Source: Pempheris klunzingeri (Eukaryota > Chordata > Actinopteri > Acropomatiformes > Pempheridae). Taken from it: a stretch of 64,000 nucleotides of DNA. The stretch lies in contig NC_092020.1 of NCBI RefSeq assembly GCF_042242105.1, positions 13,457,288 through 13,521,287 of the forward strand. Direction: 5' to 3'. Every line of letters starts with the position of its first letter. Positions within the stretch are counted from its first letter, which is position 1. Below, piece by piece: positions 2,412 to 62,558 of this stretch. Below the pieces are notes generated by a model. It worked only from the letters and a program-made list of their open reading frames with translations, searched no databases and was not told where the DNA came from. Position numbers and translations under genes: made by a program.

Positions 2412-2432
2412 TTCAGTACCGCAGACAGCGAC
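2412..2432 (+). promoter_or_regulatory. RE1/NRSE-like site after V1
   Basis: Left half TTCAGTACC, right half GACAGCGAC with the usual 2-3 base gap. It departs from the REST consensus at a few positions, including the first G of GGACAG. It lies about 390 bases after the V1 donor. Confidence 0.6.
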
Positions 2433-2691
2433 AGTCCTATACTTGACACATTACAGTGATCTATTGCCTTTGGGAAGTTATTTGATATTTCTAACAGTAA
2501 AACATTTAACGGGATGCCATTGCAGTTTATATGCCGTTTCTGCTGTTGTTTCAATGCGTAATTCATTCCGTATTTACAACACGACACAAATATCAAATGC
2601 TGTAATATTAACAACTGAGCACCAGCTGTTTATATTGGCAGGTGATAAATGCTTGTCCTCCAAGTGCCAATGTAAGGAGTTCAGGTTTTGT

Positions 2692-2715
2692 ACTCTAAGT
2701 GACGCTGTTGATCAA
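2692..2715 (+). promoter_or_regulatory. CSE (CGCT box) of the V2 promoter
   Basis: Core ACTCTAAGTGACGCTGTTG, about 230 bases before the V2 ATG. In mammals this element binds CTCF and is needed for promoter choice; here the call rests on sequence and position. Confidence 0.85.
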
Positions 2716-2941
2716 CAAAACGATTCGAGTGTTAAGAGCCAGCCTGTTCTCTTCGCTCTCTGCTGTCCTTCGTGGGAGGACAGGGAGAGAAGAGGCGATT
2801 TTTTTCCCCACGCATTTGTCTTTGGAATATAGGAGGAGCACTGTGTCATCTGAAAGCTGTGCAACATATTTAAGCTGGACTACAAGCTCATGTTTGTTTT
2901 CTTCTCTGAGGACGCATTCATCAAGATCTTTTGTTTCTGAT

Positions 2942-5380
2942 ATGGCAACCCGAGGTCTGCCCTGCCCTAGAAGTGTAAGATGGCGATTGTCTTTTATATT
3001 AAGATGTCAAGTGAGATTTCTTATTTTGCTTTCTTTCATTGGTGCCAGAGTGGCGGGTCAGATTCGTTATTCTGTTCCAGAGGAGATGAAAAAAGGCTCC
3101 GTTATTGGTAACGTAGCACAAGACCTCGGCCTGGATCTGAAAAGGCTCCGTTCTGGCCGGGCCCGTATCGTGAGTGGAGAAAACATCCAGTACACCGAGC
3201 TGAAGACAGACAAAGGGACTCTAGTTGTGAATGAGAGAATAGACCGAGAGCAGCTTTGTGGAGACGTGACACCGTGCAGCCTCAGCTTCGAAATCATTTT
3301 AGAAAACCCAATCGAACTTCATCGTATTACTGTCGAAATTTTAGATATTAATGATAACTCGCCTTTCTTTTCAAATAAAGACATCCAGTTTGAAATGAGT
3401 GAATCTGCTACAATTGGAGCAAAATTTCCAGTTGAAAGCGCAGTTGATCCTGACGTTGGACTTAACACGTTACAAAATTACATTCTATCTCCAAATAATC
3501 ATTTTATGCTCAAACAACATGCAAATCCAGACGGCAGTAAATACGCTGAACTGGTGCTCCAGAAGCCGTTAGACAGAGAGGAACACCCCAGTCTCCCTCT
3601 AAAAGTCATAGCTGTTGACGGTGGAAACCCACAGAGATCTGGTACGGTGAATATAATAGTGTCAGTTTTAGATGCAAACGATAATGCACCTGTGTTCAAC
3701 CAGTCAGTTTATAGGGCCGTCGTTGTTGAAAATGCACCAAAAGGGACTTATATTACAACAGTTAACGCCACTGATGCAGACATTGGCACTAACGGGGAGA
3801 TAATATTTAGTTTTTCGAAAATAAAAGGCAGTACGGTTGATATGTTTAGTATCGATGAAAACACGGGTGACATATCAGTTGCTGGACTTATAGACTATGA
3901 AAAAGAGAAAAAATATGAGCTTAGGTTAGAGGCAAGAGATCGAGGGGGTTTGACCGGGACCAGTAAAGTTATAATTGAAGTTAGCGATGTCAATGACAAT
4001 GTTCCAGTTATTAATATCATGTCATTTTCGAATACAATATCAGAAGATGCCACTCTCGGCACAACAATAGCTGTCATCAACGTCAAAGACGCTGATTCAG
4101 AGAAAAATGGAAAGATAACATGCACCACAGACAAAACGCTCCCGTTTCAAATCCAGTCGTCATTAACGAACTACTATAACTTGGTGGTGGATCAGCATTT
4201 TGACAGAGAGGCTACTTCTGAATACGATATCACGATAATAGCAACCGACTCGGGGTCTCCTCCTCTCTCCAGCTCTGTCACACTGCAGCTTAGAATATCT
4301 GACGTAAACGATAACGTCCCCGCGTTCGACAGACACTCCTATTCTGCTTACGTCACAGAGAACAATTCTCCTGGAATGTCCATCACCACTGTGAGGGCAC
4401 TAGATTCTGATTGGAATCTTAACGCGAGAGTCTCGTATTTCCTGGAGGAAAAACAAATCAGCGGAAATCCAGTGTCTACTTATGTGTCCATAAACTCTGA
4501 AACTGGGGTTTTGCATGCGGTGCGTTCCTTTGATTATGAACAAATGAAAGAGCTTCAGCTAGTAGTCAAAGCGCAGGATGGAGGCTCCCCTCCACTCAGT
4601 AGTAATGTGACCGTGAAAATACTGATCCAGGACCAGAACGACAACCCCCCTCAGGTTCTGTACCCAGTCCAGACTGGAGGCTCTCTGGTGGATGAGATGG
4701 TGCCTCGTTCAGCAGATGTGGGCTACCTGGTGACTAAAGTGGTGGCTGTGGATGTGGACTCTGGACAGAATGCCTGGCTCTCCTATAAAGTGCAGAAAGC
4801 CACAGACAGGGCGCTGTTTGAAGTGGGCTCACAGAACGGAGAAATCAGAACTATCCGCCAAGTGACTGATAAAGATGCTGTGAGACAAAGACTGACTGTG
4901 ATAGTGGAGGACAACGGGCAGCCCTCTCGTTCAGCTACAGTCATTGTTAACGTGGCGGTGGCGGACAGCTTCCCTGAAGTGCTGTCGGAGTTCACTGACT
5001 TTACTCACGACAAGGAGTACAACGACAACCTGACTTTTTACTTAGTGTTGGCTCTGGCTGTAGTTTCCTTCCTCTTCATCACGTGTGTGGTGGTTATTAT
5101 CTCAGTGAAAATCTACAGATGGAGACAGTCTCGCATCCTGTATCACTCCAACCTGCCTGTGATTCCATATTATCCACCACGTTACTCAGACACTTTGGGG
5201 ACAGGGACTCTCCAACACGTGTACAACTACGAGGTGTGCAGGACGACTGACTCCAGAAAGAGTGACATCAAATATATGCAACCTATCAGTCAAAGTTTAG
5301 TGAGTGTGGATGGAGCTGGGACTGATGCAGCGCAGATGGAGAAGCAACTGTCCGGCAACTGTTCTCAAATGTCAACTTTG
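2942..5380 (+). CDS. pcdhg: V2: gamma-type protocadherin variable exon with alternative cytoplasmic tail
   Basis: 813 codons. The ATG at 2942 is the last in-frame ATG before the hydrophobic signal segment; the mature protein probably starts at QIRYSVPEE (residue 40). EC1 has the CX5C loop (CGDVTPC) diagnostic of clustered protocadherins. Six EC repeats and the shared membrane span follow. The extracellular half is specific up to about 4570, then the DNA joins the shared block. After SRKSD the tail switches to IKYMQPISQSLVSVDG and ends with QMSTL at the donor TTG|GTGAGT (phase 0), in place of the usual CKFGRAG...DSPLE tail. Only V4 shares this tail. Read-through past the donor stays open to 5635. 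An upstream open stretch (from 2699) overlaps the CSE and is unlikely to be translated. Confidence 0.95.
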
Positions 5381-5490: not shown

Positions 5491-5511
5491 GTCACTGTCC
5501 ACGGTGCTGAA
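5491..5511 (-). promoter_or_regulatory. RE1/NRSE site after V2, reverse orientation
   Basis: On the minus strand it reads TTCAGCACC, GT, GGACAGTGAC: both halves match with canonical spacing and a mismatch at the C of GCG. It begins 111 bases after the V2 donor. Confidence 0.75.
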
Positions 5512-5987: not shown

Positions 5988-6010
5988 GGACTCTGAGCGC
6001 CGCTGTTGAT
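5988..6010 (+). promoter_or_regulatory. CSE of the V3 promoter
   Basis: Core ACTCTGAGCGCCGCTGTTG, about 225 bases before the V3 ATG. Confidence 0.88.
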
Positions 6011-6233: not shown

Positions 6234-8654
6234 ATGATGGCTTGTATGTGGATAAACGCCCGCAGAGGCCGATGGCAGGCACTGTTTGTCATTCTTTGTC
6301 TGTTCAAGCTGAGCTCAGTGACTGGACAGGCTCGGTACTCCGTACCGGAGGAGCAGGCAGAAGGGTCTTTTGTTGGGAACATTGCGAGAGATTTGGGCTT
6401 GGATGTGGCGAGGCTCATATCAGGTAAAGCTCGTATCATTACAAAAGGAAGCCGACAGTACGTTGATTTAAACCGAGACAAAGGCCTCCTTGTTATTAAA
6501 GAGCGAATCGACCGAGAAGAACTGTGTGGAAAGACGACGCCCTGTAGCTTCAGTTTCGAGGTGATTTTAGAGAATCCGATCCAGCTTTATCGGGTAACAG
6601 TGGAGGTAATAGACATAAACGACAACAGTCCGTCCTTCCCAAAGGATGAAATCCATTTGAAAATTGTCGAAAGTGCTGCATCAGGGACTCGGTTCACGTT
6701 GGTGAGTGCCGACGACCCTGATGTTGGTATTAATGATATTCAAAAATACACTCTGAAACCGTCAGAAAATTTCAAATTAGAGGTACAGAACCAGCCTGAT
6801 GGAGGAAAATTCATAGAAATGGTTTTACAAAACCCGTTAGACCGAGAGAAAGAGGAGACTCACACACTGGTGCTGATCGCTTCAGATGGAGGAGAGCCAC
6901 ATAGATCAGGGACAGTGCGTATTCATATCACTGTGCTGGATGCTAACGATAATGCGCCAGTGTGCAGCCAGCCTGTTTACAAAGCAGATGTCAAAGAGAA
7001 CTCTGCTGAGGGGACAGTGGTAACCACTGTTAGTGCAGAGGACGCAGATAAAGGAAGTAATGGGGAGGTAACTTTTTCTATCCCATTTGTCGCTAAACAG
7101 ACAAAACAGCTTTTTGAAGTAAACGCTAAAACTGGAGAGATTAAAGTTGCAGGTAAACTGGATTTTGAAAAATCAAAGACTTTTCAATTAAATGTTCAAG
7201 CTAGTGATCACGGTGGATTTACAGATACATGTAAAGTTATTATTCAGGTAATTGACGAGAATGACAACGTCCCCACAATACAGCTAATGTCATTTTCTAA
7301 CTCGATATCCGAGGATTCTCCTCCAGGAACAACTATAGCTGTTGTTAACGTGGATGATGAAGACTCTGATGGTAACGGTGTTGTCAAGTGCTCCATTAAC
7401 TCTGATGTACCTTTTAAAATCGAGTCCTCATTAACTGGATATTATACTGTAGTGACCGAAGACTTCTTAGACAGAGAAAGTGTTCCCGAGTATAATATCA
7501 CCATAACCGTCTCTGACCAAGGCTCTCCGCCTCTGTCTAGCAGTAAAAACATCAATGTGAGAGTGTCGGACGTGAATGACAGTCCACCCAAATTCGATCA
7601 GTCAGAATATAGAAAGACTGTAGCAGAGAACAACTCTCCTGGATTCTCTGTGTTTACTGTCAGTGCCAGTGATGCAGACTGGGGCCAAAACGCTCGAGTT
7701 TCCTACTTTGTGGACGAGAAAGAGATTAATGGGGTTGCTGTGTCTGCATTAGTGTCAGTAAATTCAGAAAGTGGTGTCATTCATGCAGTGAGGTCGTTTG
7801 ATTACGAACAAATTAAGTGGTTTGAATTTAACGTAACTGCTCGTGATGCTGGATCACCTCCTCTGAGTTCGGTGGCCACAGTTAGAATACTGATCCAGGA
7901 CCAGAACGACAACCCCCCTCAGGTTCTGTACCCAGTCCAGAGTGGAGGCTCTCTGGTGGATGAGATGGTGCCTCGTTCAGCAGATGTGGGCTACCTGGTG
8001 ACTAAAGTGGTGGCTGTGGATGTGGACTCTGGACAGAATGCCTGGCTCTCCTATAAAGTGCAGAAAGCCACAGACAGGGCGCTGTTTGAAGTGGGCTCAC
8101 AGAACGGAGAAATCAGAACTATCCGCCAGGTGACTGATAAAGATGCTGTGAGACAAAGACTGACTGTGATAGTGGAGGACAACGGGCAGCCCTCTCGTTC
8201 AGCTACAGTCATTGTTAACGTGGCGGTGGCGGACAGCTTCCCTGAAGTGCTGTCGGAGTTCACTGACTTTACTCACGACAAGGAGTACAACGACAACCTG
8301 ACTTTTTACTTAGTGTTGGCTCTGGCTGTAGTTTCCTTCCTCTTCATCACGTGTGTGGTGGTTATTATCTCAGTGAAAATCTACAGATGGAGACAGTCTC
8401 GCATCCTGTATCACTCCAACCTGCCTGTGATTCCATATTATCCACCACGTTACTCAGACACTTTGGGGACAGGGACTCTCCAACACGTGTACAACTACGA
8501 GGTGTGCAGGACGACAGACTCCAGAAAGAGTGACTGTAAGTTCGGCAGAGCTGGTAGTCAGAACGTGCTGATAATGGAGCCCAGTTCAACAGGGACGATG
8601 CAGCGGATACAGAGTGAGAAGAACATCCTGGATGAACCAGACTCTCCTTTAGAG
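6234..8654 (+). CDS. pcdhg: V3: gamma-type protocadherin variable exon (QARYS family)
   Basis: 807 codons from the first of three close in-frame ATGs (6234, 6237, 6246). The signal peptide ends near SSVTG and the mature chain starts QARYSVPEEQAEGSF, unlike the QIRYS or QVSYS families. EC1 has CX5C (CGKTTPC). EC3 opens with a cysteine (APVCSQP) and has a second in TDTCKVII, a pair absent from several other exons. EC1-EC5 are family-specific; the shared block begins only at about 7888 (LIQDQNDNPP). EC6 carries the PVQSGG variant. The standard CKFGRAG tail ends at GAG|GTAGGT, phase 0. V5 is a near-identical copy except for two patches in EC2 and EC3. Confidence 0.96.
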
Positions 8655-8770: not shown

Positions 8771-8797
8771 TTCAGTACCACTAGTGATGGACAGCTC
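8771..8797 (+). promoter_or_regulatory. Split RE1-like site after V3
   Basis: Left half TTCAGTACC and right half GGACAGCTC are separated by 9 bases, against 2 in the canonical site. REST is known to accept some widened half-site spacings. It lies 117 bases after the donor, where other exons have normal sites. Confidence 0.5.
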
Positions 8798-9107: not shown

Positions 9108-9131
9108 GGACTCTAAGGGCCGCTGTCGGTC
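9108..9131 (+). promoter_or_regulatory. CSE of the V4 promoter
   Basis: Core ACTCTAAGGGCCGCTGTCG, about 260 bases before the V4 start, with one change in the last bases of the core. Confidence 0.85.
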
Positions 9132-9387
9132 TTCAAAGCACATTTGAAGCTTCTGAAATGCAGCTCCACGTCCTGGACTCCTCTCAGTGTACGGCGGAGA
9201 GCAGGGCATTCACTCTTAATATTCACTGGTGATTTTTAGACTAATGTACTCGTTGTCACACCGTGGATTATAAACACACCAACAGAAGGACTGTAAACTG
9301 TAGTAGGGCGGCTTTTTGCAACATACTTTTTTGCTGATTTGATTGGATTGCCTCGGGAATATGATTTACATCAGCAGTGGACTCACG

Positions 9388-11766
9388 ATGAAATGGCAAG
9401 TACGGGCCTTCATCCTTGTTTTTCTCATTGACGCCACAATCTGTCAGATCCGCTACTCTGTCCCAGAGGAGATGAGGAAGGGTTCCTTTGTAGGGAATGT
9501 GGCTGAGGATTTAGGTATCGACGCTAAAAGACTGACATCAGGCGGTGCCCGAATTGTTAGCGGTGATAACAGCGAGTATATCAGGCTGGATGTAGACAAA
9601 GGGATTCTTGTCGTGGAAGACAGAATAGACAGAGAGCAGCTCTGCGGGCAGACATCGCCCTGTAGCTTGAATTTTGAAATGGTTATGATGAATCCAATGC
9701 AACTACATAGCGTTGTAGTGGAAGTGTTGGATGTCAATGATAATGCACCTGTGTTTCACGAGAAAGACGTGCATGTAGAAATAGTAGAATCTGCTCTTCC
9801 AGGAACCGAAATATTACAAGAGAGTGCCACCGACCCTGATGTTGGCATCAACGCTTTACATGGTTATACGTTACACCCAACAACGCATTTTAATATCAAG
9901 GTCCTGTCCAGCCCAAATGGTCATAAATATGCACAATTGTACCTGTCTAATACTTTAGACCGCGAGAAAGAGGAAAAGCTGCTTCTCACCCTAACTGCTG
10001 TTGACGGTGGTGAACCACAGCGGTCAGGGACGCTGAAAATACACGTAACCGTGCGAGACACTAACGACAATGCTCCGGTTTTCATGCAATCGATTTTCAA
10101 GGCATCTGTTAAAGAACATGTTCCAAAAGGAACCTTGGTGTTGAGTTTGAGCGCAACAGACGCAGATGAGGGAATGAATGGCCGTGTTACATACCACTTT
10201 AATCGCATGTCAAGTAATGTTGCTGAACTATTTAATCTGGATGAAAACAGCGGTGATTTAACTGTAAACGGTTTGATTGATTATGAAGAGAATAAAATAT
10301 ATGAGATAGGCGTGCAGGCAAAAGATCAAGGCGGACAAAGCACATCAACAAAAGTAATAATTGAGGTGACGGATGTGAATGACAACGCACCTGTAATAAC
10401 ACTTACTTCGTTTTCTAGTACCATTGCTGAGAATTCTCCCAGTGGAACTACTGTGGCTATCATTAATGTTAAAGATCTCGATTCAGGCAAAAATGGCAAA
10501 GTAGACTGTTCAGTTAACGGTAATATCCCGTTTGCAATCCATTCATCTCTAAAGAATTATTATACTCTGGTGACAAACGGTGTCCTCGACAGGGAGCGTA
10601 ATCCTGATTACAATATCACTTTCACGGCTAAGGATGAGGGTAGCCCACCACTCTCGACAAACAAAACAATAACACTTCGAGTATCCGACGTAAATGATAA
10701 TGCCCCAGTATTTGAACACAGTTTTTATGAAGCTAATATCATGGAGAATAACTCCCCAGGATTGTCTGTGTTTTCCGTAAATGCACGGGACTCTGACTCA
10801 GGGCAGAACGCAAGAGTGTCTTACCTGCTTGTTGATACTCAGATAAATGGAAACCCCATATCCACTTACATATCTGTTAACGCTGAAAGTGGAACTATAC
10901 ACGCAGTTCGATCATTTGACTATGAGCAAATAAAAACTTTGAATATTTTCGTTAAAGGACAGGATGGGGGGTCCCCGCCCTTAAGCAGCAATACCACAGT
11001 TAAATTAATTATTCAAGATCAGAACGACAATCCCCCTCAGGTTCTGTACCCAGTCCAGACTGGAGGCTCTCTGGTGGATGAGATGGTGCCTCGTTCAGCA
11101 GATGTGGGCTACCTGGTGACTAAAGTGGTGGCTGTGGATGTGGACTCTGGACAGAATGCCTGGCTCTCCTATAAAGTGCAGAAAGCCACAGACAGGGCGC
11201 TGTTTGAAGTGGGCTCACAGAACGGAGAAATCAGAACTATCCGCCAAGTGACTGATAAAGATGCTGTGAGACAAAGACTGACTGTGATAGTGGAGGACAA
11301 CGGGCAGCCCTCTCGTTCAGCTACAGTCATTGTTAACGTGGCGGTGGCGGACAGCTTCCCTGAAGTGCTGTCGGAGTTCACTGACTTTACTCACGACAAG
11401 GAGTACAACGACAACCTGACTTTTTACTTAGTGTTGGCTCTGGCTGTAGTTTCCTTCCTCTTCATCACGTGTGTGGTGGTTATTATCTCAGTGAAAATCT
11501 ACAGATGGAGACAGTCTCGCATCCTTTATCACTCCAACCTGCCCGTGATTCCATATTATCCACCACGTTACTCAGACACTTTGGGGACAGGGACTCTCCA
11601 ACACGTGTACAACTATGAGGTGTGCAGGACGACTGACTCCAGAAAGAGTGACATCAAATATATGCAACCTATCAGTCAAAGTTTAGTGAGTGTGGATGGA
11701 GCTGGGACTGATGCAGCGCAGATGGAGAAGCAACTGTCCGGCAACTGTTCTCAAATGTCAACTTTG
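9388..11766 (+). CDS. pcdhg: V4: gamma-type protocadherin variable exon with alternative cytoplasmic tail
   Basis: 793 codons from the ATG at 9388 (MKWQVRAFI), the position that aligns with MxRQV starts elsewhere; an in-frame ATG at 9361 is a possible alternative. The mature chain starts QIRYSVPEEMRKGSF. EC1 CX5C is CGQTSPC. EC1-EC5 are clearly different from V2, and the EC5-EC6 linker DNA still shows its own codons until about 11037, where the shared block begins abruptly. The tail is the IKYMQPISQ type, with donor TTG|GTGAGT. From the shared block on it is a copy of V2, so V4 looks like a recombinant: its own ectodomain joined to V2-type tail and intron. Confidence 0.95.
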
Positions 11767-11876: not shown

Positions 11877-11897
11877 GCCACTGTCCACGGTGCTGAA
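11877..11897 (-). promoter_or_regulatory. RE1/NRSE site after V4, reverse orientation
   Basis: Minus strand TTCAGCACC, GT, GGACAGTGGC. It differs from the V2 copy by one base. Confidence 0.75.
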
Positions 11898-12373: not shown

Positions 12374-12396
12374 GGACTCTGAGCGCCGCTGTTGAT
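12374..12396 (+). promoter_or_regulatory. CSE of the V5 promoter
   Basis: Same core as V3 (ACTCTGAGCGCCGCTGTTG), part of the duplicated unit. Confidence 0.88.
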
Positions 12397-12619: not shown

Positions 12620-15040
12620 ATGATGGCTTGTATGTGGATAAACGCCCGCAGAGGCCGATGGCAGGCACTGTTTGTCATTCTTTGTCTGTTCAAGCTGAGC
12701 TCAGTGACTGGACAGGCTCGGTACTCCGTACCGGAGGAGCAGGCAGAAGGGTCTTTTGTTGGGAACATTGCGAGAGATTTGGGCTTGGATGTGGCGAGGC
12801 TCATATCAGGTAAAGCTCGTATCATTACAAAAGGAAGCCGACAGTACGTTGATTTAAACCGAGACAAAGGCCTCCTTGTTATTAAAGAGCGAATCGACCG
12901 AGAAGAACTGTGTGGAAAGACGACGCCCTGTAGCTTCAGTTTCGAGGTGATTTTAGAGAATCCGATCCAGCTTTATCGGGTAACAGTGGAGGTAATAGAC
13001 ATAAACGACAACAGTCCGTCCTTCCCAAAGGATGAAATCCTTTTGAAAATTATCGAAAGTGCTGCATCAGGAACTCGCTTCTCACTAGAGAGTGCCGACG
13101 ACCCTGATGTTGGTATTAATGATATTCAAAAATACACTCTGAAACCGTCAGATAATTTCAAATTAGAGGTACAGAACCAGCCTGATGGAGGAAAATTCAT
13201 CGAAATGGTTTTACAAAACCCGTTAGACCGAGAGAAAGAGGAGACTCACACACTGGTGCTGATCGCTTCAGATGGAGGAGAGCCACATAGATCAGGGACA
13301 GTGCGTATTCATATCACTGTGCTGGATGCTAACGATAATGCGCCAGTGTGCAGCCAGCCTGTTTACAAAGCAGATGTCAAAGAGAACTCTGCTGAGGGGA
13401 CAGTGGTAACCACTGTTAGTGCAGAGGACGCAGATAAAGGACACTATGGTGAAATATCTTATTCCATAGCTCATGTCGCCAGAGAAGCGAAGCAGGTTTT
13501 TGAAGTAAACGCTAAAACTGGAGAGATTAAAGTTGCAGGTAAACTGGATTTTGAAAAATCAAAGACTTTTCAATTAAACGTTAAAGCTAGTGATCACGGC
13601 GGATATACAGATACATGTAAAGTTATTATTCAGGTAATTGACGAGAATGACAACGTCCCCACAATACAGCTAATGTCATTTTCTAACTCGATATCCGAGG
13701 ATTCTCCTCCAGGAACAACTATAGCTGTTGTTAACGTGGATGATGAAGACTCTGATGGTAACGGTGTTGTCAAGTGCTCCATTAACTCTGATGTACCTTT
13801 TAAAATCGAGTCCTCATTAACTGGATATTATACTGTAGTGACCGAAGACTTCTTAGACAGAGAAAGTGTTCCCGAGTATAATATCACCATAACCGTCTCT
13901 GACCAAGGCTCTCCGCCTCTGTCTAGCAGTAAAAACATCAATGTGAGAGTGTCGGACGTGAATGACAGTCCACCCAAATTCGATCAATCAGAATATAGAA
14001 AGACTGTAGCAGAGAACAACTCTCCTGGATTCTCTGTGTTTACTGTCAGTGCCAGTGATGCAGACTGGGGCCAAAACGCTCGAGTTTCCTACTTTGTGGA
14101 CGAGAAAGAGATTAATGGGGTAGCTGTGTCTGCATTAGTGTCAGTAAACTCAGAAAGTGGTGTCATTCATGCAGTGAGGTCGTTTGATTACGAACAAATT
14201 AAGTGGTTTGAATTTAACGTAACTGCTCGTGATGCTGGATCACCTCCTCTGAGTTCGGTGGCCACAGTTAGAATACTGATCCAGGACCAGAACGACAACC
14301 CCCCTCAGGTTCTGTACCCAGTCCAGAGTGGAGGCTCTCTGGTGGATGAGATGGTGCCTCGTTCAGCAGATGTGGGCTACCTGGTGACTAAAGTGGTGGC
14401 TGTGGATGTGGACTCTGGACAGAATGCCTGGCTCTCCTATAAAGTGCAGAAAGCCACAGACAGGGCGCTGTTTGAAGTGGGCTCACAGAACGGAGAAATC
14501 AGAACTATCCGCCAAGTGACTGATAAAGATGCTGTGAGACAAAGACTGACTGTGATAGTGGAGGACAACGGGCAGCCCTCTCGTTCAGCTACAGTCATTG
14601 TTAACGTGGCGGTGGCGGACAGCTTCCCTGAAGTGCTGTCGGAGTTCACTGACTTTACTCACGACAAGGAGTACAACGACAACCTGACTTTTTACTTAGT
14701 GTTGGCTCTGGCTGTAGTTTCCTTCCTCTTCATCACGTGTGTGGTGGTTATTATCTCAGTGAAAATCTACAGATGGAGACAGTCTCGCATCCTGTATCAC
14801 TCCAACCTGCCTGTGATTCCATATTATCCACCACGTTACTCAGACACTTTGGGGACAGGGACTCTCCAACACGTGTACAACTACGAGGTGTGCAGGACGA
14901 CAGACTCCAGAAAGAGTGACTGTAAGTTCGGCAGAGCTGGTAGTCAGAACGTGCTGATAATGGAGCCCAGTTCAACAGGGACGATGCAGCGGATACAGAG
15001 TGAGAAGAACATCCTGGATGAACCAGACTCTCCTCTAGAG
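12620..15040 (+). CDS. pcdhg: V5: gamma-type protocadherin variable exon (QARYS family), duplicate of V3
   Basis: 807 codons. Signal peptide, EC1, EC4, EC5, EC6 (PVQSGG) and the tail match V3 almost base for base. Differences concentrate at 13041-13089 (EC2, IIESAASGTRFSLES against IVESAASGTRFTLVS) and 13442-13496 (EC3, HYGEISYSIAHVAREAKQV against SNGEVTFSIPFVAKQTKQL). The exon ends at GAG|GTTGGT in phase 0; read-through stops after two residues. The changes sit in the domains that determine partner choice in this family, so V3 and V5 could have different homophilic specificity despite being recent copies. Confidence 0.96.
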
Positions 15041-15133: not shown

Positions 15134-15154
15134 TTCAGCTCCACGGACAGCATT
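15134..15154 (+). promoter_or_regulatory. RE1/NRSE-like site after V5
   Basis: TTCAGCTCC, AC, GGACAGCATT: strong except for one change in the left half and at the 3' end. It lies 94 bases after the donor. Confidence 0.7.
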
Positions 15155-15752: not shown

Positions 15753-15778
15753 GGACTCTAAGGGACGCTGTTGATCAG
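15753..15778 (+). promoter_or_regulatory. CSE of the V6 promoter
   Basis: Core ACTCTAAGGGACGCTGTTG, about 245 bases before the V6 ATG. Confidence 0.87.
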
Positions 15779-19038: not shown

Positions 19039-19059
19039 GTCAGCACCATGGACAGCACG
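19039..19059 (+). promoter_or_regulatory. RE1/NRSE-like site before V7
   Basis: GTCAGCACC, AT, GGACAGCACG: canonical spacing with few mismatches. It lies about 275 bases upstream of the V7 CSE. Confidence 0.7.
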
Positions 19060-19312: not shown

Positions 19313-19338
19313 GAACTCACAGGGACGCTGTTGACTAG
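19313..19338 (+). promoter_or_regulatory. CSE of the V7 promoter, with CCTCCC block
   Basis: Core ACTCACAGGGACGCTGTTG. GCAGCTGTACCTCCCCCATC follows from 19363. Confidence 0.86.
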
Positions 19339-19592
19339 TCTGCTGAGATTTCAGAGCTCATTGCAGCTGTACCTCCCCCATCATCTCGTTATGTTACAGA
19401 GAGAGAGAAAATAGAATTAAAAGGCACGTTTTGGAAGAGGAGGATGATCAAACACGGAGATACCATGCGAATTATCAGCGTTTGAGGGATTGTGGACACT
19501 TGATTGCTTCATTGACGTTTGTATCTTAAGCTTTTCGCTGGACAACGGATTTGATACCACTTTTTGTGGACGGGAGAATGTCGGACAGAACA

Positions 19593-22393: not shown

Positions 22394-22414
22394 TTCAGAA
22401 CTGCGGACAGCGAC
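22394..22414 (+). promoter_or_regulatory. RE1/NRSE-like site after V7
   Basis: TTCAGAACT, GC, GGACAGCGAC: full right half, two changes in the left half. It lies 414 bases after the donor. Confidence 0.68.
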
Positions 22415-22836: not shown

Positions 22837-22862
22837 GGACTCTTAGGGCCGCTGTTGACCAG
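22837..22862 (+). promoter_or_regulatory. CSE of the V8 promoter, with CCTCCC block
   Basis: Consensus core ACTCTTAGGGCCGCTGTTG followed by ACCAG. The downstream block GCAGCGCCTCCCATG starts at 22891. Confidence 0.9.
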
Positions 22863-40010: not shown

Positions 40011-40031
40011 TTCAGAACTGCGGACAGCGAC
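40011..40031 (+). promoter_or_regulatory. RE1/NRSE-like site after V12
   Basis: TTCAGAACT, GC, GGACAGCGAC, 414 bases after the donor as in the other two copies. Confidence 0.68.
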
Positions 40032-40453: not shown

Positions 40454-40479
40454 GGACTCTTAGGGCCGCTGTTGACCAG
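40454..40479 (+). promoter_or_regulatory. CSE of the V13 promoter, with CCTCCC block
   Basis: ACTCTTAGGGCCGCTGTTG; CCTCCC block in 40508-40529. Confidence 0.9.
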
Positions 40480-43704: not shown

Positions 43705-43725
43705 TTCAGAACATTGGACAGCGAC
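43705..43725 (+). promoter_or_regulatory. RE1/NRSE-like site after V13
   Basis: TTCAGAACA, TT, GGACAGCGAC. 569 bases after the donor. Confidence 0.68.
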
Positions 43726-44099: not shown

Positions 44100-44125
44100 G
44101 AACTCTTAGGGCCGCTGTTGACCAG
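44100..44125 (+). promoter_or_regulatory. CSE of the V14 promoter, with CCTCCC block
   Basis: ACTCTTAGGGCCGCTGTTG then ACCAG; CCTCCC block in 44154-44175. Confidence 0.9.
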
Positions 44126-46837: not shown

Positions 46838-46858
46838 TTCAGTACCTTGGACAGCTCC
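46838..46858 (+). promoter_or_regulatory. RE1/NRSE-like site after V14, first of two
   Basis: TTCAGTACC, TT, GGACAGCTCC: two mismatches outside the gap. 76 bases after the donor. Confidence 0.78.
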
Positions 46859-47471: not shown

Positions 47472-47492
47472 TTCAGCACCTGGGACAGCGAA
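47472..47492 (+). promoter_or_regulatory. RE1/NRSE site after V14, second of two
   Basis: TTCAGCACC, TG, GGACAGCGAA: both half-site cores complete. Confidence 0.85.
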
Positions 47493-47787: not shown

Positions 47788-47813
47788 AAACTCTTAGGGC
47801 CGCTGTTGACCAT
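47788..47813 (+). promoter_or_regulatory. CSE of the V15 promoter, with CCTCCC block
   Basis: ACTCTTAGGGCCGCTGTTG preceded by AA; GCAGCACCTCCCATG starts at 47840. Confidence 0.9.
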
Positions 47814-50929: not shown

Positions 50930-50950
50930 TTCAGAACATTGGACAGCGAC
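50930..50950 (+). promoter_or_regulatory. RE1/NRSE-like site after V15
   Basis: TTCAGAACA, TT, GGACAGCGAC, as after V13. 477 bases after the donor. Confidence 0.68.
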
Positions 50951-51324: not shown

Positions 51325-51350
51325 GAACTCTTAGGGCCGCTGTTGACCAG
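51325..51350 (+). promoter_or_regulatory. CSE of the V16 promoter, with CCTCCC block
   Basis: ACTCTTAGGGCCGCTGTTG; CCTCCC block in 51379-51400. Confidence 0.9.
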
Positions 51351-51602: not shown

Positions 51603-53987
51603 ATGGATCGGCAAGTACTGCTGTTTATCTGTCTCCTCTCCGTCGACGCAGGGCTCGGGCAGGTCAGCTACAGTATTCCAGAGGAGATGGCCAAAGGATC
51701 CTTAGTGGGCAATATAGCACATGATTTAGGTATAGAAACCAAACGTTTGGCGTCTGGTAAAGCTCGAATCTATACCAGAGACAGTGGTGAGTACATCGGG
51801 CTGAACAGAGAGAGGGGAGTCCTCCTTGTTAAGGAGAGAATCGACAGAGAGGCGCTCTGCAGACAGACGACGCCGTGTGCTTTACATTTTCAGATCATTT
51901 TGGAGAATCCTATGGAATTTTACAGCGTTACTGTCCAGATCACAGATATCAATGATAATGCACCAACATTTGAAAAAAGTGAGATGAAATTCAAAATAAG
52001 TGAGTCAGCGGCAATCGGAGCAAAATTTGTGCTAGAAAGGGCTGTGGATCTTGATGTAGGAATTAACGACCTGAAAAGCTACGAATTAAAGCCAACAGAT
52101 AATTTTGCCTTGAAGCTCCACAGTAACGCAGATGGGAATAAAAATGTTGAGATGGTGCTACAGAAGCCTTTAGACAGAGAGAAACAAGAGCAGATCTCTC
52201 TCGTGTTAACTGCTGTAGATGGAGGAGAGCCGCAGATGTCAGGAACAATGCTGATTGTCATCACAGTTTTAGACGCTAATGATAATGCCCCCGTTTTTAC
52301 ACAGCCCACATACAAGGCTACAGTTACTGAGAACTCACCTAAAGGCACAGTTGTTGCCACAGTTTCAGCTGCAGATGCAGATCAAGGCTCAAACGGTAAA
52401 ATAACTTATTCAATCACAAACACGCTTGATGATGTCAGAAAAGTATTCGAAGTAAATAAGCAAAATGGTGAAGTAACTTTAATTGGAAATATTGACTTTG
52501 AGGAGTCTCGAAACTATCAAATAAATTTACTTGCTAGTGATGAGGGTGGACTAACAGATTCGTGCAAATTAATTGTTGACGTACAAGACATGAATGACAA
52601 CAAGCCTGAAATCGACATAATGTCAAAATCAAACGTGATATCAGAGGATGCCAAAATGAATACGGTCGTTACAATGATAAACATCGATGACCAAGATTCA
52701 GCAGAAAACGGAAAGGTGCAATGTTTTATCAACGAAAATATACCATTCACTTTAAAATCATCAACAAATGATTTCTACAGTTTAGTGACAGACAGTGATT
52801 TAGACCGAGAGAGAGCCTCTGAGTATAACATCAGTGTGACCTGCTCTGATGAGGGAGTGCCCTCCCTCTCCAGCAGCGTCACTCTCACCTTACAGATCTC
52901 TGATGTGAATGACAACGAGCCTGTTTTTGAGAGGAGCTCATATGAGGCCTACATAGTAGAAAACAACACACCAGGCCTCTCTATATTCACAGTGAAAGCC
53001 AGAGACGCTGACTGGAAGCAGAACGCGCGTGTTTCTTACCTCCTGGAGGACTCATCTGTTAACGGAGTGCCAGTCTCCTCATATGTGTCCGTCAGTGCTG
53101 ATAGTGGAGTCATCCATGCAGTGCGCTCTTTTGACTACGAGCAGATCAAAGACTTCCAGTTCCGCGTCAAGGCGCAGGATGGAGGCTCCCCTCCACTCAG
53201 TAGTAATGTGACCGTGAAAATACTGATCCAGGACCAGAACGACAACCCCCCTCAGGTTCTGTACCCAGTCCAGACTGGGGGCTCTCTGGTGGATGAGATG
53301 GTGCCTCGTTCAGCAGATGTGGGCTACCTGGTGACTAAAGTGGTGGCTGTGGATGTGGACTCTGGACAGAATGCCTGGCTCTCCTATAAAGTGCAGAAAG
53401 CCACAGACAGGGCGCTGTTTGAAGTGGGCTCACAGAACGGAGAAATCAGAACTATCCGCCAAGTGACTGATAAAGATGCTGTGAGACAAAGACTGACTGT
53501 GATAGTGGAGGACAACGGGCAGCCCTCTCGTTCAGCTACAGTCATTGTTAACGTGGCGGTGGCGGACAGCTTCCCTGAAGTGCTGTCGGAGTTCACTGAC
53601 TTTACTCACGACAAGGAGTACAACGACAACCTGACTTTTTACTTAGTGTTGGCTCTGGCTGTAGTTTCCTTCCTCTTCATCACGTGTGTGGTGGTTATTA
53701 TCTCAGTGAAAATCTACAGATGGAGACAGTCTCGCATCCTGTATCACTCCAACCTGCCTGTGATTCCATATTATCCACCACGTTACTCAGACACTTTGGG
53801 GACAGGGACTCTCCAACACGTGTACAACTACGAGGTGTGCAGGACGACTGACTCCAGAAAGAGTGACTGTAAGTTCGGCAGAGCTGGTAGTCAGAACGTG
53901 CTGATAATGGAGCCCAGTTCAACAGGGACGATGCAGCGGATACAGAGTGAGAAGAACATCCTGGATGAACCAGACTCTCCTCTAGAG
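51603..53987 (+). CDS. pcdhg: V16: gamma-type protocadherin variable exon, duplicate of V14
   Basis: 795 codons; signal peptide and EC1 match V14 except RLASGKAR for RLTSGKAR. EC2 differs (FEKSEMKFKISESAAIGAKFVLERAVDLDVGINDLKSYELKP). EC3 has TLDDVRKVFEVNKQNGEV. EC4 begins like V8 (SNVISEDAKMNTVV) with ENIPFTLKSSTNDF. EC6 carries the silent GGGGGC variant otherwise seen only in V18. Donor GAG|GTTAGA; read-through stays open for about 84 codons to 54239 and contains hydrophobic runs, but has no recognised function. Confidence 0.96.
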
Positions 53988-54057: not shown

Positions 54058-54078
54058 TTCAGCACCTCGGACAGAGGC
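54058..54078 (+). promoter_or_regulatory. RE1/NRSE site after V16
   Basis: TTCAGCACC, TC, GGACAGAGGC: perfect left half, GGACAG kept, GCG changed. 71 bases after the donor. Confidence 0.75.
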
Positions 54079-54362: not shown

Positions 54363-54388
54363 CAACTCCATGGGCCGCTGTTGGTCAA
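54363..54388 (+). promoter_or_regulatory. CSE of the V17 promoter, with CCTCCC block
   Basis: Core ACTCCATGGGCCGCTGTTG; GGAGCCTCCCATGTC from 54419. Confidence 0.86.
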
Positions 54389-54639: not shown

Positions 54640-57015
54640 ATGAGTCGGCAACTGTTGTTCATCTCCATCTTCTCGCTCGGTTCAGTTCTCGGCCATGTCA
54701 GCTACTCTATTCCGGAGGAAATGGCAAAGGGCTCTGTCGTGGGGAACATAGCACGGGACTTAGGTCTAGATGTGAAAAGACTTAAGTCAGGTAAAGCCCG
54801 CATATTTACGGGCGACAGCGCCGAATACATCGAGCTGAGTAGAGAAAGAGGACTCCTCCTCGTGAAAGAGAGAATCGACAGAGAGTCGCTCTGCAGACAG
54901 ACGACGCCTTGTGCTTTACATTTGCAGATTATTCTAGAAAACCCAATGGAGCTCTTTCGAATAACAGTAGAGATCACCGACATCAACGACAACAGTCCTA
55001 GTTTTAAGAATAACGAGAAACGTTTTGAAATCAGCGAATCCGCAGTTACAGGGTCTAAATTTGTATTAGAAAGAGCAGTTGATGCAGACATTGGCCTGAA
55101 TGGTTTGAAAAATTACAGCTTGAAACCTGCAGATAATTTCGTACTGAAATTACAGAATCATGCAGATGGTAACAAAAAGGTCGAAATGGTGTTAAACAAG
55201 CCTTTGGATCGAGAGAAAGAGGAGCAGATATCGTTGCTGTTAACAGCTGTGGATGGAGGGGAACCTCAGATGTCTGGTACAGTGAAGATTTATGTCACCG
55301 TGCTCGATGCTAATGACAATGCTCCTGTTTTTGTGCAGTCGGTCTACAAGGCAGCCATAGCGGAAAATTCCCAGAAAGGTACAACATTGACAACAGTGAG
55401 TGCTTCTGATGCAGATAAAGGAACAAACGGGGAGGTTTCTTATTCAGTGTCGACCACTATGGACAGTGTGTCAGACATATTTACAATAAATGAAAACGGT
55501 GAAGTAATACTAGTCGGTGAAGTTGACTTTGAAAAAGCCAAGTATTACGAAATTGATATTGAAGCTAAAGACAGTGGTGGTCTTTCTGATTCCAGTAAGA
55601 TTATCGTTGACGTTATTGACACTAATGATAATAAGCCTGTAATCAGTATTCTTTCAAAGTCTGATTCAATCCCAGAAGACTCTCCCCAAAATACAGTTGT
55701 AGTCATGTGTAGTGTCCTTGACCCAGATTCAGGTAACAATGGGCAAGTGAACTGTAGAATAAATGGCAACATACCATTTGCCATTACGTCTTCAAATGAT
55801 TTCTATAGTTTAGTAACAGACAGTGATTTAGACCGAGAGAGAGCCTCTGAGTATAACATCAGTGTGACCTGCTCTGATGAGGGAGTGCCCTCCCTCTCCA
55901 GCAGCGTCACTCTCACCTTACAGATCTCTGATGTGAATGACAACGAGCCTGTTTTTGAGAGGAGCTCATATGAGGCCTACATAGTAGAAAACAACACACC
56001 AGGCCTCTCTATATTCAAAGTGAAAGCCAGAGACGCTGACTGGAAGCAGAATGCGCGTGTTTCTTACCTCCTGGAGGACTCCTCTGTTAACGGAGTGCCA
56101 GTCTCCTCATATGTGTCCGTCAGTGCTGATAGTGGAGTCATCCATGCAGTGCGCTCTTTTGACTACGAGCAGATCAAAGACTTCCAGTTCCGCGTCAAGG
56201 CGCAGGATGGAGGCTCCCCTCCACTCAGTAGTAATGTGACAGTGAAAGTACTGATCCAGGACCAGAACGACAACCCCCCTCAGGTTCTGTACCCAGTCCA
56301 GACTGGAGGCTCTCTGGTGGATGAGATGGTGCCTCGTTCAGCAGATGTGGGCTACCTGGTGACTAAAGTGGTGGCTGTGGATGTGGACTCTGGACAGAAT
56401 GCCTGGCTCTCCTATAAAGTGCAGAAAGCCACAGACAGGGCGCTGTTTGAAGTGGGCTCACAGAACGGAGAAATCAGAACTATCCGCCAAGTGACTGATA
56501 AAGATGCTGTGAGACAAAGACTGACTGTGATAGTGGAGGACAACGGGCAGCCCTCTCGTTCAGCTACAGTCATTGTTAACGTGGCGGTGGCGGACAGCTT
56601 CCCTGAAGTGCTGTCGGAGTTCACTGACTTTACTCACGACAAGGAGTACAACGACAACCTGACTTTTTACTTAGTGTTGGCTCTGGCTGTAGTTTCCTTC
56701 CTCTTCATCACGTGTGTGGTGGTTATTATCTCAGTGAAAATCTACAGATGGAGACAGTCTCGCATCCTGTATCACTCCAACCTGCCTGTGATTCCATATT
56801 ATCCACCACGTTACTCAGACACTTTGGGGACAGGGACTCTCCAACACGTGTACAACTACGAGGTGTGCAGGACGACTGACTCCAGAAAGAGTGACAGTAA
56901 GTTCGGCAGAGCTGGTAGTCAGAACGTGCTGATAATGGAGCCCAGTTCAACAGGGACGATGCAGCGGATACAGAGTGAGAAGAGCATCCTGGATGAACCA
57001 GACTCTCCTCTAGAG
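54640..57015 (+). CDS. pcdhg: V17: gamma-type protocadherin variable exon (QVSYS family, diverged)
   Basis: 792 codons from MSRQLLFISIFSL. The mature N-terminus is HVSYSIPEE, with H for Q. EC1 loop CRQTTPC. EC1-EC3 are clearly its own (NPMELFRITVEITDINDNSPSF; FVQSVYKAAIAENSQKGTT), closest in EC1-EC2 to V19. EC4 is three residues shorter than in V8. The shared block starts at about 55827. Two unique changes lie in otherwise constant parts: IFKVKARDAD for IFTVKARDAD in EC5, and SRKSDSKFGRAG for SRKSDCKFGRAG in the tail, which removes a cysteine. Donor GAG|GTTAGT. Confidence 0.96.
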
Positions 57016-58327: not shown

Positions 58328-58353
58328 TTCAGCACCTTTGTCATGGACAGCAC
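58328..58353 (+). promoter_or_regulatory. Split RE1-like site in the V17-V18 gap
   Basis: Left half TTCAGCACC and right half GGACAGCAC separated by 8 bases instead of 2. It lies 1.3 kb after the V17 donor. Confidence 0.5.
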
Positions 58354-59719: not shown

Positions 59720-59745
59720 GGACTCTCAGGGCCGCTGTTGACCAA
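59720..59745 (+). promoter_or_regulatory. CSE of the V18 promoter
   Basis: Core ACTCTCAGGGCCGCTGTTG followed by ACCAA. The CCTCCC block is degenerate here (GAGCCTATCC near 59751). Confidence 0.88.
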
Positions 59746-59793
59746 TGTAGAGCCTATCCTCGTCGTTTGTTATATTTAAGAGAGAAAGACACT

Positions 59794-59816: not shown

Positions 59817-60005
59817 GCCATACTAACGTCGTTGCCGAAACGGAGAGACAACCGCGCTGCTATTCATTAATTGTGAGAAACACGAAGACAACCAGTCGTT
59901 CTCTGGATTAGTCTGGATTTTTCTCTGCAATAAAGGGACCTTAACGCTTTGGAGTATTTCTATACATCTACAGTATTTGTCGACGATAAAATGTCGAGCA
60001 GGACA

Positions 60006-62390
60006 ATGAGACGGCAAGTACTGTTGTTTATCTCGATTTTTTCTCTCAGCTCAGCGTTCGGGCAGGTCACCTACTCGATTCCCGAGGAAATGTCCAAAGG
60101 CTCTCTAGTCGGTAACATAGCGCAGGATTTAGGGTTAGAGGTGAAAAGATTGAAGTCCGGTAAAGCTCGCATATATACAGGGGACAATGCAGAATACATC
60201 GAGCTGAATAAAGAAAGAGGAGTCCTGCTTGTGAAAGAGAGAATCGACAGGGAGGCGCTCTGTGGGCAGACAACACCTTGTGCTTTACATCTTCAAATTA
60301 CACTGGAAGACCCGATTGAATTCTTTACAGTTACTGTCGAAATTAATGACATCAACGACAATGCACCCAGCTTCAAAAAGGACGAGATGAAATTTAGGAT
60401 CAGTGAGTCGGCTGTGATTGGAGCTAAATTTGTACTAGAAAGAGCTATGGATCTAGACGTCGGTGTGAACGGATTGCAGAGTTATTCGCTAAAACCCACA
60501 GACAACTTTCATCTTAAACTCCAAAATCAGCAAGACGGGAGCAAAAAGGTGGAGATGGTTCTGCAAAAACATCTAGACAGAGAGGCGCAAGAGCACCTCT
60601 CTTTAACTCTCACAGCTACTGATGGTGGTGATCCTCAGCTGTCGGGAACAATGCGAGTAGAAATTTCAGTGCTAGACGCAAATGACAATGCCCCGGTATT
60701 TACGCAGGAAGTATATAAGGTTACTATAATGGAGACTTCTCCAAAGGGCACCGTGTTGTGTACCGTTAGTGCTGTAGATGCAGATCAAGGTTCAAATGGA
60801 AAAGTGTCATATTCAATAACAAACACGTTGGATGACGTCCCTGTTATGTTTCAACTCGACGAAGAACATGGTGTGGTGGTTTTATCTGGAAACCTGGATT
60901 ATGAAAAGGCTCAGCACTACGAAATACACGTACAAGCTAGTGATGATGGAGGACTGACAGATTCATGCAAGATTATTGTAGAGGTGACTGATACTAATGA
61001 CAACCATCCGGCCATTAATGTCATGTCTAAAACCAATTCAGTACCAGAAAATTCTAGGCCAGGGACTGTGGTAACTATTTTTAATGTTCAAGATCCTGAC
61101 TCTGGAGATAATGGCAAAGTTTCATGTAATATCGAAGACCATATGCCATTTCTGATGAAAACAACATCGAAAAAATTCTTTAGCCTAGTGACAGACAGTG
61201 ATTTAGACCGAGAGAGAGCCTCTGAGTATAACATCAGTGTGACCTGCTCTGATGAGGGAGTGCCCTCCCTCTCCAGCAGCGTCACTCTCACCTTACAGAT
61301 CTCTGATGTGAATGACAACGAGCCTGTTTTTGAGAGGAGCTCATATGAGGCCTACATAGTAGAAAACAACACACCAGGCCTCTCTATATTCACAGTGAAA
61401 GCCAGAGACGCTGACTGGAAGCAGAACGCGCGTGTTTCTTACCTCCTGGAGGACTCCTCTGTTAACGGAGTGCCAGTCTCCTCATATGTGTCCGTCAGTG
61501 CTGATAGTGGAGTCATCCATGCAGTGCGCTCTTTTGACTACGAGCAGATCAAAGACTTCCAGTTCCGCGTCAAGGCGCAGGATGGAGGCTCCCCTCCACT
61601 CAGTAGTAATGTGACCGTGAAAGTACTGATCCAGGACCAGAACGACAACCCCCCTCAGGTTCTGTACCCAGTCCAGACTGGGGGCTCTCTGGTGGATGAG
61701 ATGGTGCCTCGTTCAGCAGATGTGGGCTACCTGGTGACTAAAGTGGTGGCTGTGGATGTGGACTCTGGACAGAATGCCTGGCTCTCCTATAAAGTGCAGA
61801 AAGCCACAGACAGGGCGCTGTTTGAAGTGGGCTCACAGAACGGAGAAATCAGAACTATCCGCCAAGTGACTGATAAAGATGCTGTGAGACAAAGACTGAC
61901 TGTGATAGTGGAGGACAACGGGCAGCCCTCTCGTTCAGCTACAGTCATTGTTAACGTGGCGGTGGCGGACAGCTTCCCTGAAGTGCTGTCGGAGTTCACT
62001 GACTTTACTCACGACAAGGAGTACAACGACAACCTGACTTTTTACTTAGTGTTGGCTCTGGCTGTAGTTTCCTTCCTCTTCATCACGTGTGTGGTGGTTA
62101 TTATCTCAGTGAAAATCTACAGATGGAGACAGTCTCGCATCCTGTATCACTCCAACCTGCCCGTGATTCCATATTATCCACCACGTTACTCAGACACTTT
62201 GGGGACAGGGACTCTCCAACACGTGTACAACTACGAGGTGTGCAGGACGACTGACTCCAGAAAGAGTGACTGTAAGTTCGGCAGAGCTGGTAGTCAGAAC
62301 GTGCTGATAATGGAGCCCAGTTCAACAGGGACGATGCAGCGGATACAGAGTGAGAAGAACATCCTGGATGAACCAGACTCTCCTCTAGAG
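60006..62390 (+). CDS. pcdhg: V18: gamma-type protocadherin variable exon (QVSYS family)
   Basis: 795 codons from MRRQVLLFISIFSL; an in-frame ATG at 59991 would add five residues. Mature N-terminus QVTYSIPEEMSKGSL. EC1 loop CGQTTPC, and EC1 ends VEINDINDNAP after LEDPIEFFTV, where most have LENPMEFYSV. EC2-EC3 are specific (LKLQNQQDGSKKVEM; YKVTIMETSPKGTVLCTV). The shared block starts at about 61203 and carries the GGGGGC silent variant seen in V16. Linkers are DINDNAP, DANDNAP, DTNDNHP, DVNDNEP and DQNDNPP. Donor GAG|GTTAGA. Confidence 0.96.
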
Positions 62391-62537
62391 GTTAGAAAAC
62401 TGTAACTATCACAATGTTTCATGTTTATGCAAATCAAAGGAATGGCACTGGTGCTTTCATTTCATAAGAAGGATGCTTTTAGTAGCAGCCCGAAAAAAAC
62501 AGATTTGAAAGTTTGAGAATTTGATATAACACTCAGG

Positions 62538-62558
62538 TTCAGAACTATGGACAGCGAC
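62538..62558 (+). promoter_or_regulatory. RE1/NRSE-like site after V18
   Basis: TTCAGAACT, AT, GGACAGCGAC. 148 bases after the donor, the same distance as the perfect site after V8. Confidence 0.7.

What the first reader, a model, noticed from the sequence alone, without database searches (positions are those of the whole stretch)
2412..62558. An RE1/NRSE (REST) site follows almost every protocadherin variable exon
I found 20 RE1-like sites: 13 of the 18 intervals hold one canonically spaced site, counting the two reverse copies after V2 and V4; V10 and V14 are followed by two each and V6 by one good and one degenerate site; V3 and V17 are followed by split sites; V9 by none. Most lie 70-570 bases after the splice donor, that is in the transcribed intron and upstream of the next promoter. 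The left half TTCAGNACC and right half GGACAGCG recur while surrounding DNA is unrelated between exon groups, which argues for selection. REST represses neuronal genes in non-neural cells. I recall reports of NRSEs scattered in vertebrate protocadherin clusters and one in the mammalian HS5-1 enhancer, so the principle may be known; a one-per-exon layout is the striking part. It suggests each unit carries its own silencer.
Basis: partly seen in the sequence, partly recalled or inferred. Interest (0 to 1): 0.8.

Follow-up and report, generated by a model that had tools for sequence, protein, structure and literature searches.

The report
REST silencer sites between protocadherin exons
In this fish protocadherin cluster a binding site for the neural-gene silencer REST lies ahead of almost every alternative promoter; the principle was already known from pufferfish and human, but here the orientation and the internal spacing of the sites also differ between blocks of the cluster, which could be tested.

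Summary
The window holds 17 canonical RE1/NRSE sites (at most 1 mismatch in 15 positions) against 0.005 expected from shuffles, and two with 9- and 8-base gaps. All 19 lie between exons, in 17 of 18 intervals; V9-V10 has none. Motif search without a template finds RE1. The genome holds 599 exact sites in 646 Mb; the window is about 118-fold enriched. Exact half-sites lie 7-9 bases apart 58 times genome-wide and 3-6 apart twice, the spacing rule published for human REST.

"After each exon" reads better as "before each promoter": all 19 precede the next promoter element, and three duplicate sets carry interval, RE1 and whole downstream exon together. In 284 kb, RE1s are reversed in one gamma subcluster, forward in the window's, and have 7-8-base gaps in the third. 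Multiple NRSEs in fugu clusters and one or two per human alpha/gamma exon are published, so the principle is known; subcluster-specific syntax was not seen in the papers searched. REST binding and silencing are inferred, not measured.

The parts
2412..2429 (+). RE1, canonical, interval V1-V2
   Evidence: 1 mismatch
5494..5511 (-). RE1, canonical, reverse, interval V2-V3
   Evidence: 1 mismatch
8771..8795 (+). RE1, noncanonical, gap 9, interval V3-V4
   Evidence: both halves exact
11880..11897 (-). RE1, canonical, reverse, interval V4-V5 (duplicate of 5494)
15134..15151 (+). RE1, canonical, interval V5-V6
   Evidence: 1 mismatch
19039..19056 (+). RE1, canonical, interval V6-V7
   Evidence: 1 mismatch
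22394..22411 (+). RE1, canonical, interval V7-V8
   Evidence: 1 mismatch
25667..25684 (+). RE1, canonical, exact, interval V8-V9; holds the 16-mer tested in zebrafish (PMC3531662)
32662..32679 (+). RE1, canonical, exact, first of two in interval V10-V11; same 16-mer
33007..33024 (+). RE1, canonical, second in interval V10-V11
   Evidence: 1 mismatch
36472..36489 (+). RE1, canonical, interval V11-V12 (duplicate of 22394)
40011..40028 (+). RE1, canonical, interval V12-V13 (duplicate of 22394)
43705..43722 (+). RE1, canonical, interval V13-V14
   Evidence: 1 mismatch
46838..46855 (+). RE1, canonical, exact, first of two in interval V14-V15
47472..47489 (+). RE1, canonical, exact, second in interval V14-V15
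50930..50947 (+). RE1, canonical, interval V15-V16 (duplicate of 43705)
54058..54075 (+). RE1, canonical, interval V16-V17
   Evidence: 1 mismatch
58328..58351 (+). RE1, noncanonical, gap 8, interval V17-V18
   Evidence: both halves exact
62538..62555 (+). RE1, canonical, interval V18-V19
   Evidence: 1 mismatch
2693..2710 (+). promoter element (CSE-like), V2
5991..6008 (+). promoter element (CSE-like), V3
9111..9128 (+). promoter element (CSE-like), V4
12377..12394 (+). promoter element (CSE-like), V5
15756..15773 (+). promoter element (CSE-like), V6
19316..19333 (+). promoter element (CSE-like), V7
22840..22857 (+). promoter element (CSE-like), V8
26790..26807 (+). promoter element (CSE-like), V9
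29875..29892 (+). promoter element (CSE-like), V10 (the interval without an RE1)
33400..33417 (+). promoter element (CSE-like), V11
36918..36935 (+). promoter element (CSE-like), V12
40457..40474 (+). promoter element (CSE-like), V13
44103..44120 (+). promoter element (CSE-like), V14
47791..47808 (+). promoter element (CSE-like), V15
51328..51345 (+). promoter element (CSE-like), V16
54366..54383 (+). promoter element (CSE-like), V17
59723..59740 (+). promoter element (CSE-like), V18
62836..62853 (+). promoter element (CSE-like), V19
1..2019 (+). variable exon V1 (cut by window start)
2942..5380 (+). variable exon V2, with a different 3' tail and donor
6234..8654 (+). variable exon V3
9361..11766 (+). 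variable exon V4, tail as V2
12620..15040 (+). variable exon V5
16021..18447 (+). variable exon V6
19578..21980 (+). variable exon V7
23135..25519 (+). variable exon V8 (cadherin domains, Cadherin_C_2; best PDB match protocadherin gamma B4)
27041..29467 (+). variable exon V9 (start codon uncertain)
30157..32541 (+). variable exon V10 (start codon uncertain)
33680..36058 (+). variable exon V11
37213..39597 (+). variable exon V12
40752..43136 (+). variable exon V13
44378..46762 (+). variable exon V14
48069..50453 (+). variable exon V15
51603..53987 (+). variable exon V16
54640..57015 (+). variable exon V17
60006..62390 (+). variable exon V18 (start codon uncertain)
63120..64000 (+). variable exon V19, cut by window end

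Best explanation
These are REST-binding silencer elements of a teleost clustered protocadherin gamma locus. Nearly every alternative promoter has, a few hundred bases or more upstream of its conserved CTCF-like element, at least one RE1. In cells with REST (non-neural cells, progenitors) REST binds the RE1, recruits co-repressors and keeps the neighbouring promoter, probably also neighbours in the array, off; when REST falls in neurons the promoters are released for stochastic choice. RE1 and promoter travel with the downstream exon when the cluster grows by recombination between homogenised exon 3' halves; flanking DNA drifts but the RE1 is kept. Shown here: sites, statistics, gap rule, order, duplicated blocks. 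Inferred: REST binding, repression and its release, the recombination route. Not tested: which promoter each site controls.
For: 17 canonical sites against 0.005 expected. With the promoter element cut away RE1 is the best de novo motif, score 208 against 66.8-79.4 in 8 mononucleotide shuffles searched from fewer seeds; it lands on a canonical RE1 in 11 of 14 intervals, not in I3 and I17 (split) or I9 (none). All 17 canonical sites are in intervals. In 284 kb half-site gaps are 2 (38 sites), 7-9 (9), 3-6 (0), others from 0 to 30 (4); Markov means 0.0, 0.0, 0.25, 0.7. Genome-wide: gap 7-9 58 exact, gap 3-6 2; the same rule is reported for human REST (PMC8096226). Two sites contain the 16-mer that, as a single element, gave brain-only expression of a zebrafish transgene in at least 10% of embryos against 0 of 114 without it (PMC3531662). 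Zebrafish NRSE transgene silencing needs REST (PMC3529185, abstract). Removing NRSEs from Pcdh constructs made expression ubiquitous in Xenopus (Tan 2010 as told by PMC3601302). Duplicated blocks hold interval plus whole downstream exon.
Against: No binding, chromatin or expression data for this species. PMC8096226 notes that human PCDH gamma, unlike alpha, is not neural-specific although its exons have NRSEs, because the beta-gamma enhancer lacks one; I found no RE1 in about 44 kb after the last variable exon here either, so silencing of a gamma cluster may be partial. V10 has no RE1; outside the window subcluster A has strict sites before 10 of 17 exons and subcluster C before 5 of 8. No within-site conservation test was possible: intervals are about 98% identical or unalignable. 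13 of 17 canonical sites carry one mismatch and may bind weakly. The RE1 to promoter-element distance varies, 259-1371.
Confidence: 0.82

Rival explanations
1. The sites bind REST but work as a cluster-wide array: many RE1s spread REST repression, or hinder CTCF/cohesin looping to a distal enhancer, over the locus, so that no RE1 belongs to one promoter.
For: Some intervals have none and others two. Human REST at HS5-1 lowers enhancer-promoter contacts (PMC8096226). Recalled from the abstract of Tan 2010: genes without an NRSE are regulated by those of neighbours. RE1 distance to the promoter element is not fixed.
Against: Near one-per-interval spacing in the window and copying together with the downstream exon would not be needed for a diffuse array.
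Confidence: 0.35
2. REST at these sites acts inside neurons, keeping non-chosen isoforms off, rather than excluding the cluster from non-neural cells.
For: Suggested for the human exon sites in the discussion of PMC8096226.
Against: REST is reported as undetectable in mature neurons (introduction of the same paper); no test here.
Confidence: 0.08
3. The motif works in RNA (for instance a splicing element in the pre-mRNA), not as REST DNA sites.
For: 14 of 15 distinct window sites point in the sense direction, two-sided p 0.001, and most lie soon after the donor.
Against: Reverse copies after V2 and V4, and 12 of 12 strict sites before the exons numbered 0-18 upstream of and up to the start of the window's subcluster are reversed. 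The 2-or-7-9 gap rule is REST's. The motif occurs on both strands genome-wide, 278 and 321.
Confidence: 0.02
4. The repeats come from recent tandem duplication or a mobile element carrying an RE1, without selection to keep it.
For: Three duplicate sets in the window, more outside. A few of 210 flank comparisons score high, z up to 4.3, and the six bases 3' of the core are more alike than random, p 0.0065.
Against: 15 distinct sites remain, with no flank similarity overall: mean z 0.01 (5') and 0.16 (3') over 105 pairs.
Confidence: 0.04

Closest known systems
NRSEs of the fugu protocadherin cluster (Tan et al. 2010, NAR 38:4985; not held, seen through citing papers; abstract recalled)
   Same: Teleost clustered protocadherins with multiple NRSEs, placed in promoters by a review (PMC3601302 figure legend); silencing of protocadherin constructs in non-neural tissue
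Human PCDH alpha/gamma NRSEs (Tang et al. 2021, PMC8096226; sections 20 and 26 and passages seen)
   Same: One NRSE per alternate alpha and gamma-b exon, two per gamma-a exon except a9; gap 2 or 7-9; none found in the beta-gamma super-enhancer
   Different: Human sites lie inside the variable exons; here 38 of 38 strict canonical sites and 9 of 9 with gap 7-9 in 284 kb lie outside them
Zebrafish NRSE transgene elements (PMC3531662 section 13; PMC3529185 abstract)
   Same: Same 16-mer core at 25668 and 32663 (PMC3531662)
   Different: Artificial promoters, not the native cluster

Membership tests
Canonical RE1/NRSE | Left half TTCAGNACC, 2-base gap, right half GGACAGC, far above chance | tested here: met
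Canonical RE1/NRSE | Bound by REST in vivo | not testable with these tools
   no ChIP data; two sites hold a 16-mer with published function in zebrafish
Noncanonical RE1/NRSE | Gap 7-9, not 3-6 | tested here: met
   window gaps 9 and 8; 284 kb 9 against 0; genome 58 against 2
Clustered protocadherin variable region | Tandem large exons, same strand, cadherin repeats plus cytoplasmic stub, then a splice donor | tested here: met
   domains scanned in 3 of 19 exons, PDB in 1
Clustered protocadherin gamma | Downstream gamma constant exons | tested here: inconclusive
   frames at about 239.5 and 241.4 kb in flank coordinates (C9:13598662) look like gamma constant exons, recognised by recall only; the family search did not complete
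Pcdh promoter CSE / CTCF site | Conserved element shortly upstream of each exon | tested here: met
   18 of 18 window intervals, 225-277 bases before the ATG in the 17 measured
Pcdh promoter CSE / CTCF site | Binds CTCF | not tested
   inferred from position and from reviews

The most novel reading that the evidence does not exclude
Each gamma subcluster has its own REST syntax: reversed canonical RE1s in the first, forward canonical ones in the second, sites with 7-8-base gaps in the third. If gap and orientation tune REST affinity or its interplay with CTCF, the subclusters would be released at different REST levels, so that a silencer code staggers protocadherin isoform use during neurogenesis.
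Probability: 0.2. Interest if true: 0.7.

Novelty: new member of a known kind. Interest (0 to 1): 0.45.

Why it matters
Clustered protocadherins give neurons individual surface identities, and how the array is kept silent where it is not wanted is only partly known. A cluster where almost every promoter has its own REST site, with natural exceptions (V10 without, V11 and V15 with two, V4 and V18 with the alternative spacing, whole subclusters with other syntax), allows a direct test of local against cluster-wide REST silencing and of whether RE1 spacing class matters in vivo.

Tried and rejected
Searches for relatives in viral contigs (none) and genome contigs (one distant cadherin-like stretch in a bacterial MAG, L001) gave no fish comparison. 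Rfam at gathering thresholds and tandem-repeat scans found nothing. The right half GGACAGC occurs in 18 of 18 exons V1-V18 but inside the homogenised 3' block, so conservation there proves nothing; not counted as RE1. Flank homology between distinct sites: rejected overall. Fixed distance from donor or promoter element: not found. No distinct RE1 lies within 258 bases of the promoter element (p 0.0006 under uniform placement) and RE1s lie nearer the donor than uniform (mean fraction 0.36, p 0.03, 14 sites); the first statistic was chosen after looking. A regular expression for the promoter element gave some match before 41 of 59 exons in the wider locus, a few of them spurious, missing most of subclusters A and C, so RE1-then-element order is claimed for the window only. 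Tan 2010 could not be read (a guessed DOI was not held). Two paper searches aimed at this question returned 0 papers (protocadherin, NRSE, teleost; protocadherin, RE1, subcluster, orientation); others were. The Fisher tests use distinct intervals collapsed by hand, the interval before exon 51 counted with C; intervals 52 and 53 still share 222 bases at 77%. They came before one search showed more exons upstream; interval 0, also reversed, was not added. Left out of strict counts: 8 gap-2 sites with exactly 2 mismatches in 284 kb (5 in or before subcluster A, 3 in B). Confidence was lowered from 0.88 to 0.82 on recheck because of the human gamma expression remark.
Full report
The window is a stretch of a teleost clustered protocadherin locus (teleost is inferred from the cluster's make-up). 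It lies at C9:13457288-13521287 of a 646 Mb genome. It holds 19 large same-strand variable exons, the first and last cut. Three exons scanned have cadherin repeats and the cytoplasmic stub; the closest solved structure to V8 is protocadherin gamma B4. Of the 18 exons whose 3' end lies in the window, 16 end in the same coding tail; V2 and V4 have another tail and donor. The last 700 bases are at least 99% alike among those 16, as described for fugu subclusters and put down there to gene conversion (PMC1852091, abstract and sections 5 and 7 seen). Frames resembling the gamma constant exons lie downstream (recognised by recall), and the three subclusters resemble the three gamma subclusters of fugu Pcdh2 (inference).

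The motif is not chance. With 15 scored positions the window holds 4 exact and 13 one-mismatch matches and none with two; shuffles give 0.005 at up to one mismatch. Of 300 permuted motifs none reaches 17 at up to one mismatch; 1, 3 and 1 reach the observed counts at up to two, three and four. An expectation-maximisation search on 14 non-redundant intervals, with no template, returned first a promoter element CTCTTAGGGCCGCTGTTG in several registers and then RE1. With the promoter element cut away RE1 was the best motif, 208 against 66.8-79.4 in 8 mononucleotide shuffles started from fewer seeds, and fell on a canonical RE1 in 11 of 14 intervals. The genome holds 599 exact copies of TTCAGNACCNNGGACAG (reversed-pattern control 1), 0.06 expected per window against 7 seen. 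By the criterion of a zebrafish scan that found 1102 sites in that genome (PMC3531662 section 13) the window has 10.

The gap fingerprint is REST's. The two split sites have gaps of 9 and 8. In 284 kb around the window half-site pairs have gap 2 (38), 7 (2), 8 (6), 9 (1), none at 3-6, and 4 at 13, 19 and 25; the two at 25 reuse the left half of the reversed sites in I2 and I4. Genome-wide, exact halves are 7-9 apart 58 times and 3-6 apart twice; 4 of the 58 lie in this locus. PMC8096226 (sections 20 and 26 and passages seen) reports gaps of 2 or 7-9 and not 3-6 for human REST.

Layout. In the window 17 of 18 intervals have an RE1; V9-V10 has none. All 19 sites lie outside exons and 5' of the promoter element, which stands in 18 of 18 intervals, 225-277 bases before the next start codon in the 17 measured. 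For the 15 distinct sites the distance to that element is 259-1371 bases. Three sets of near-identical blocks show what is copied together: 20585-25522 / 34663-39600 / 38281-43139; 4565-8661 / 10951-15047; 43376-46767 / 50601-53992. Each holds the interval (in the third set most of it) and the whole downstream exon and stops within about 10 bases of that exon's donor. In the first two sets only the 3' part of the upstream exon is shared. In the third the upstream exons are alike too: 40703-43285 / 48021-50601, 94.7%, running about 149 bases into the interval, so there a two-exon block may have been copied. After near-identical exons (V3/V5, V8/V12/V13, V14/V16) the intervals are unrelated yet carry different RE1s, except for short promoter-block matches. 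Because exon 3' halves are alike everywhere, the true crossover may lie anywhere in them; what co-segregates is interval, promoter and the 5' part of the downstream exon. By descent the RE1 therefore goes with the downstream promoter.

Beyond the window. 100 kb on each side plus 10 kb at each end were fetched. tblastn maps 59 exons in the inner 264 kb and two more whole ones upstream, here numbered 0 and -1. In the first subcluster (17 exons with a preceding interval) strict canonical RE1s precede 10; 2 more have only two-mismatch sites and 5 none. With those before exons 16 and 18, 12 of 12 strict sites are reversed. In the window's subcluster (32 intervals, before exons 19-50) 24 have a strict canonical site, 3 a gap 7-9 site, 3 a two-mismatch site, 2 none; all but the two duplicated reverse copies are forward. 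In the third subcluster 5 of 8 intervals have a forward gap 7-8 site (two of them near-identical duplicates) and 3 none; the interval before it has a reversed gap-8 site. On distinct intervals orientation (7 reversed, 0 forward against 1, 19) gives p 9e-6, and gap class (17 canonical, 3 not, against 0, 5) p 0.001; such intervals share descent, so these figures are descriptive. No site was listed after the last exon, in about 44 kb, in keeping with the report that the human beta-gamma super-enhancer lacks a REST site.

Known and new. A review describes multiple NRSEs in the fugu cluster, in promoters, whose removal made transgenes ubiquitous in Xenopus (PMC3601302, passages); passages of two other papers cite the same work (PMC7811963; PMC4978886). 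Human alpha and gamma alternate exons hold one or two NRSEs each (PMC8096226). Near one-per-unit REST sites are thus not new in principle. The orientation and gap class per gamma subcluster was not found in the papers I could search (searches returned none), but the main fish paper was not readable here.

Mechanism. Sequence shows sites, order and co-duplication. From established knowledge of REST I infer that it silences these promoters through co-repressors in non-neural cells and progenitors. A published alternative for the alpha enhancer is REST hindering CTCF and enhancer contacts, and the same paper remarks that human gamma genes are not neural-specific, so silencing here may be partial. 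Whether each RE1 acts on one promoter or the array acts together is open; V10 without a site is the natural test.

Noticed in passing
window 1596, 4963, 8231 and the homologous place in all 18 exons V1-V18: An exact REST right half GGACAGC inside each exon, coding for A-D-S in the shared 3' block. Human gamma exons have REST sites inside the exon; whether this is the same place was not tested.
   Followed up: partly
window about 5267-5380 and 11653-11766: V2 and V4 end in a different cytoplasmic tail and donor from the other 16 exons with a 3' end in the window; exon 17 upstream of the window has a similar tail.
   Followed up: no
C9:13357288-13587398 (flank coordinates 1-230111): 59 variable exons in one direction, in three subclusters with single divergent exons between them.
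   Followed up: partly
window 5471-5477 and 11857-11863: A second right-half-like TGACAGC (reverse strand) follows the left half of the reversed RE1s in I2 and I4 at a gap of 25.
   Followed up: no
L001 3058-3366: A cadherin-like stretch, 32% identical to V8, in a contig labelled Sphingomonadales MAG.
   Followed up: no
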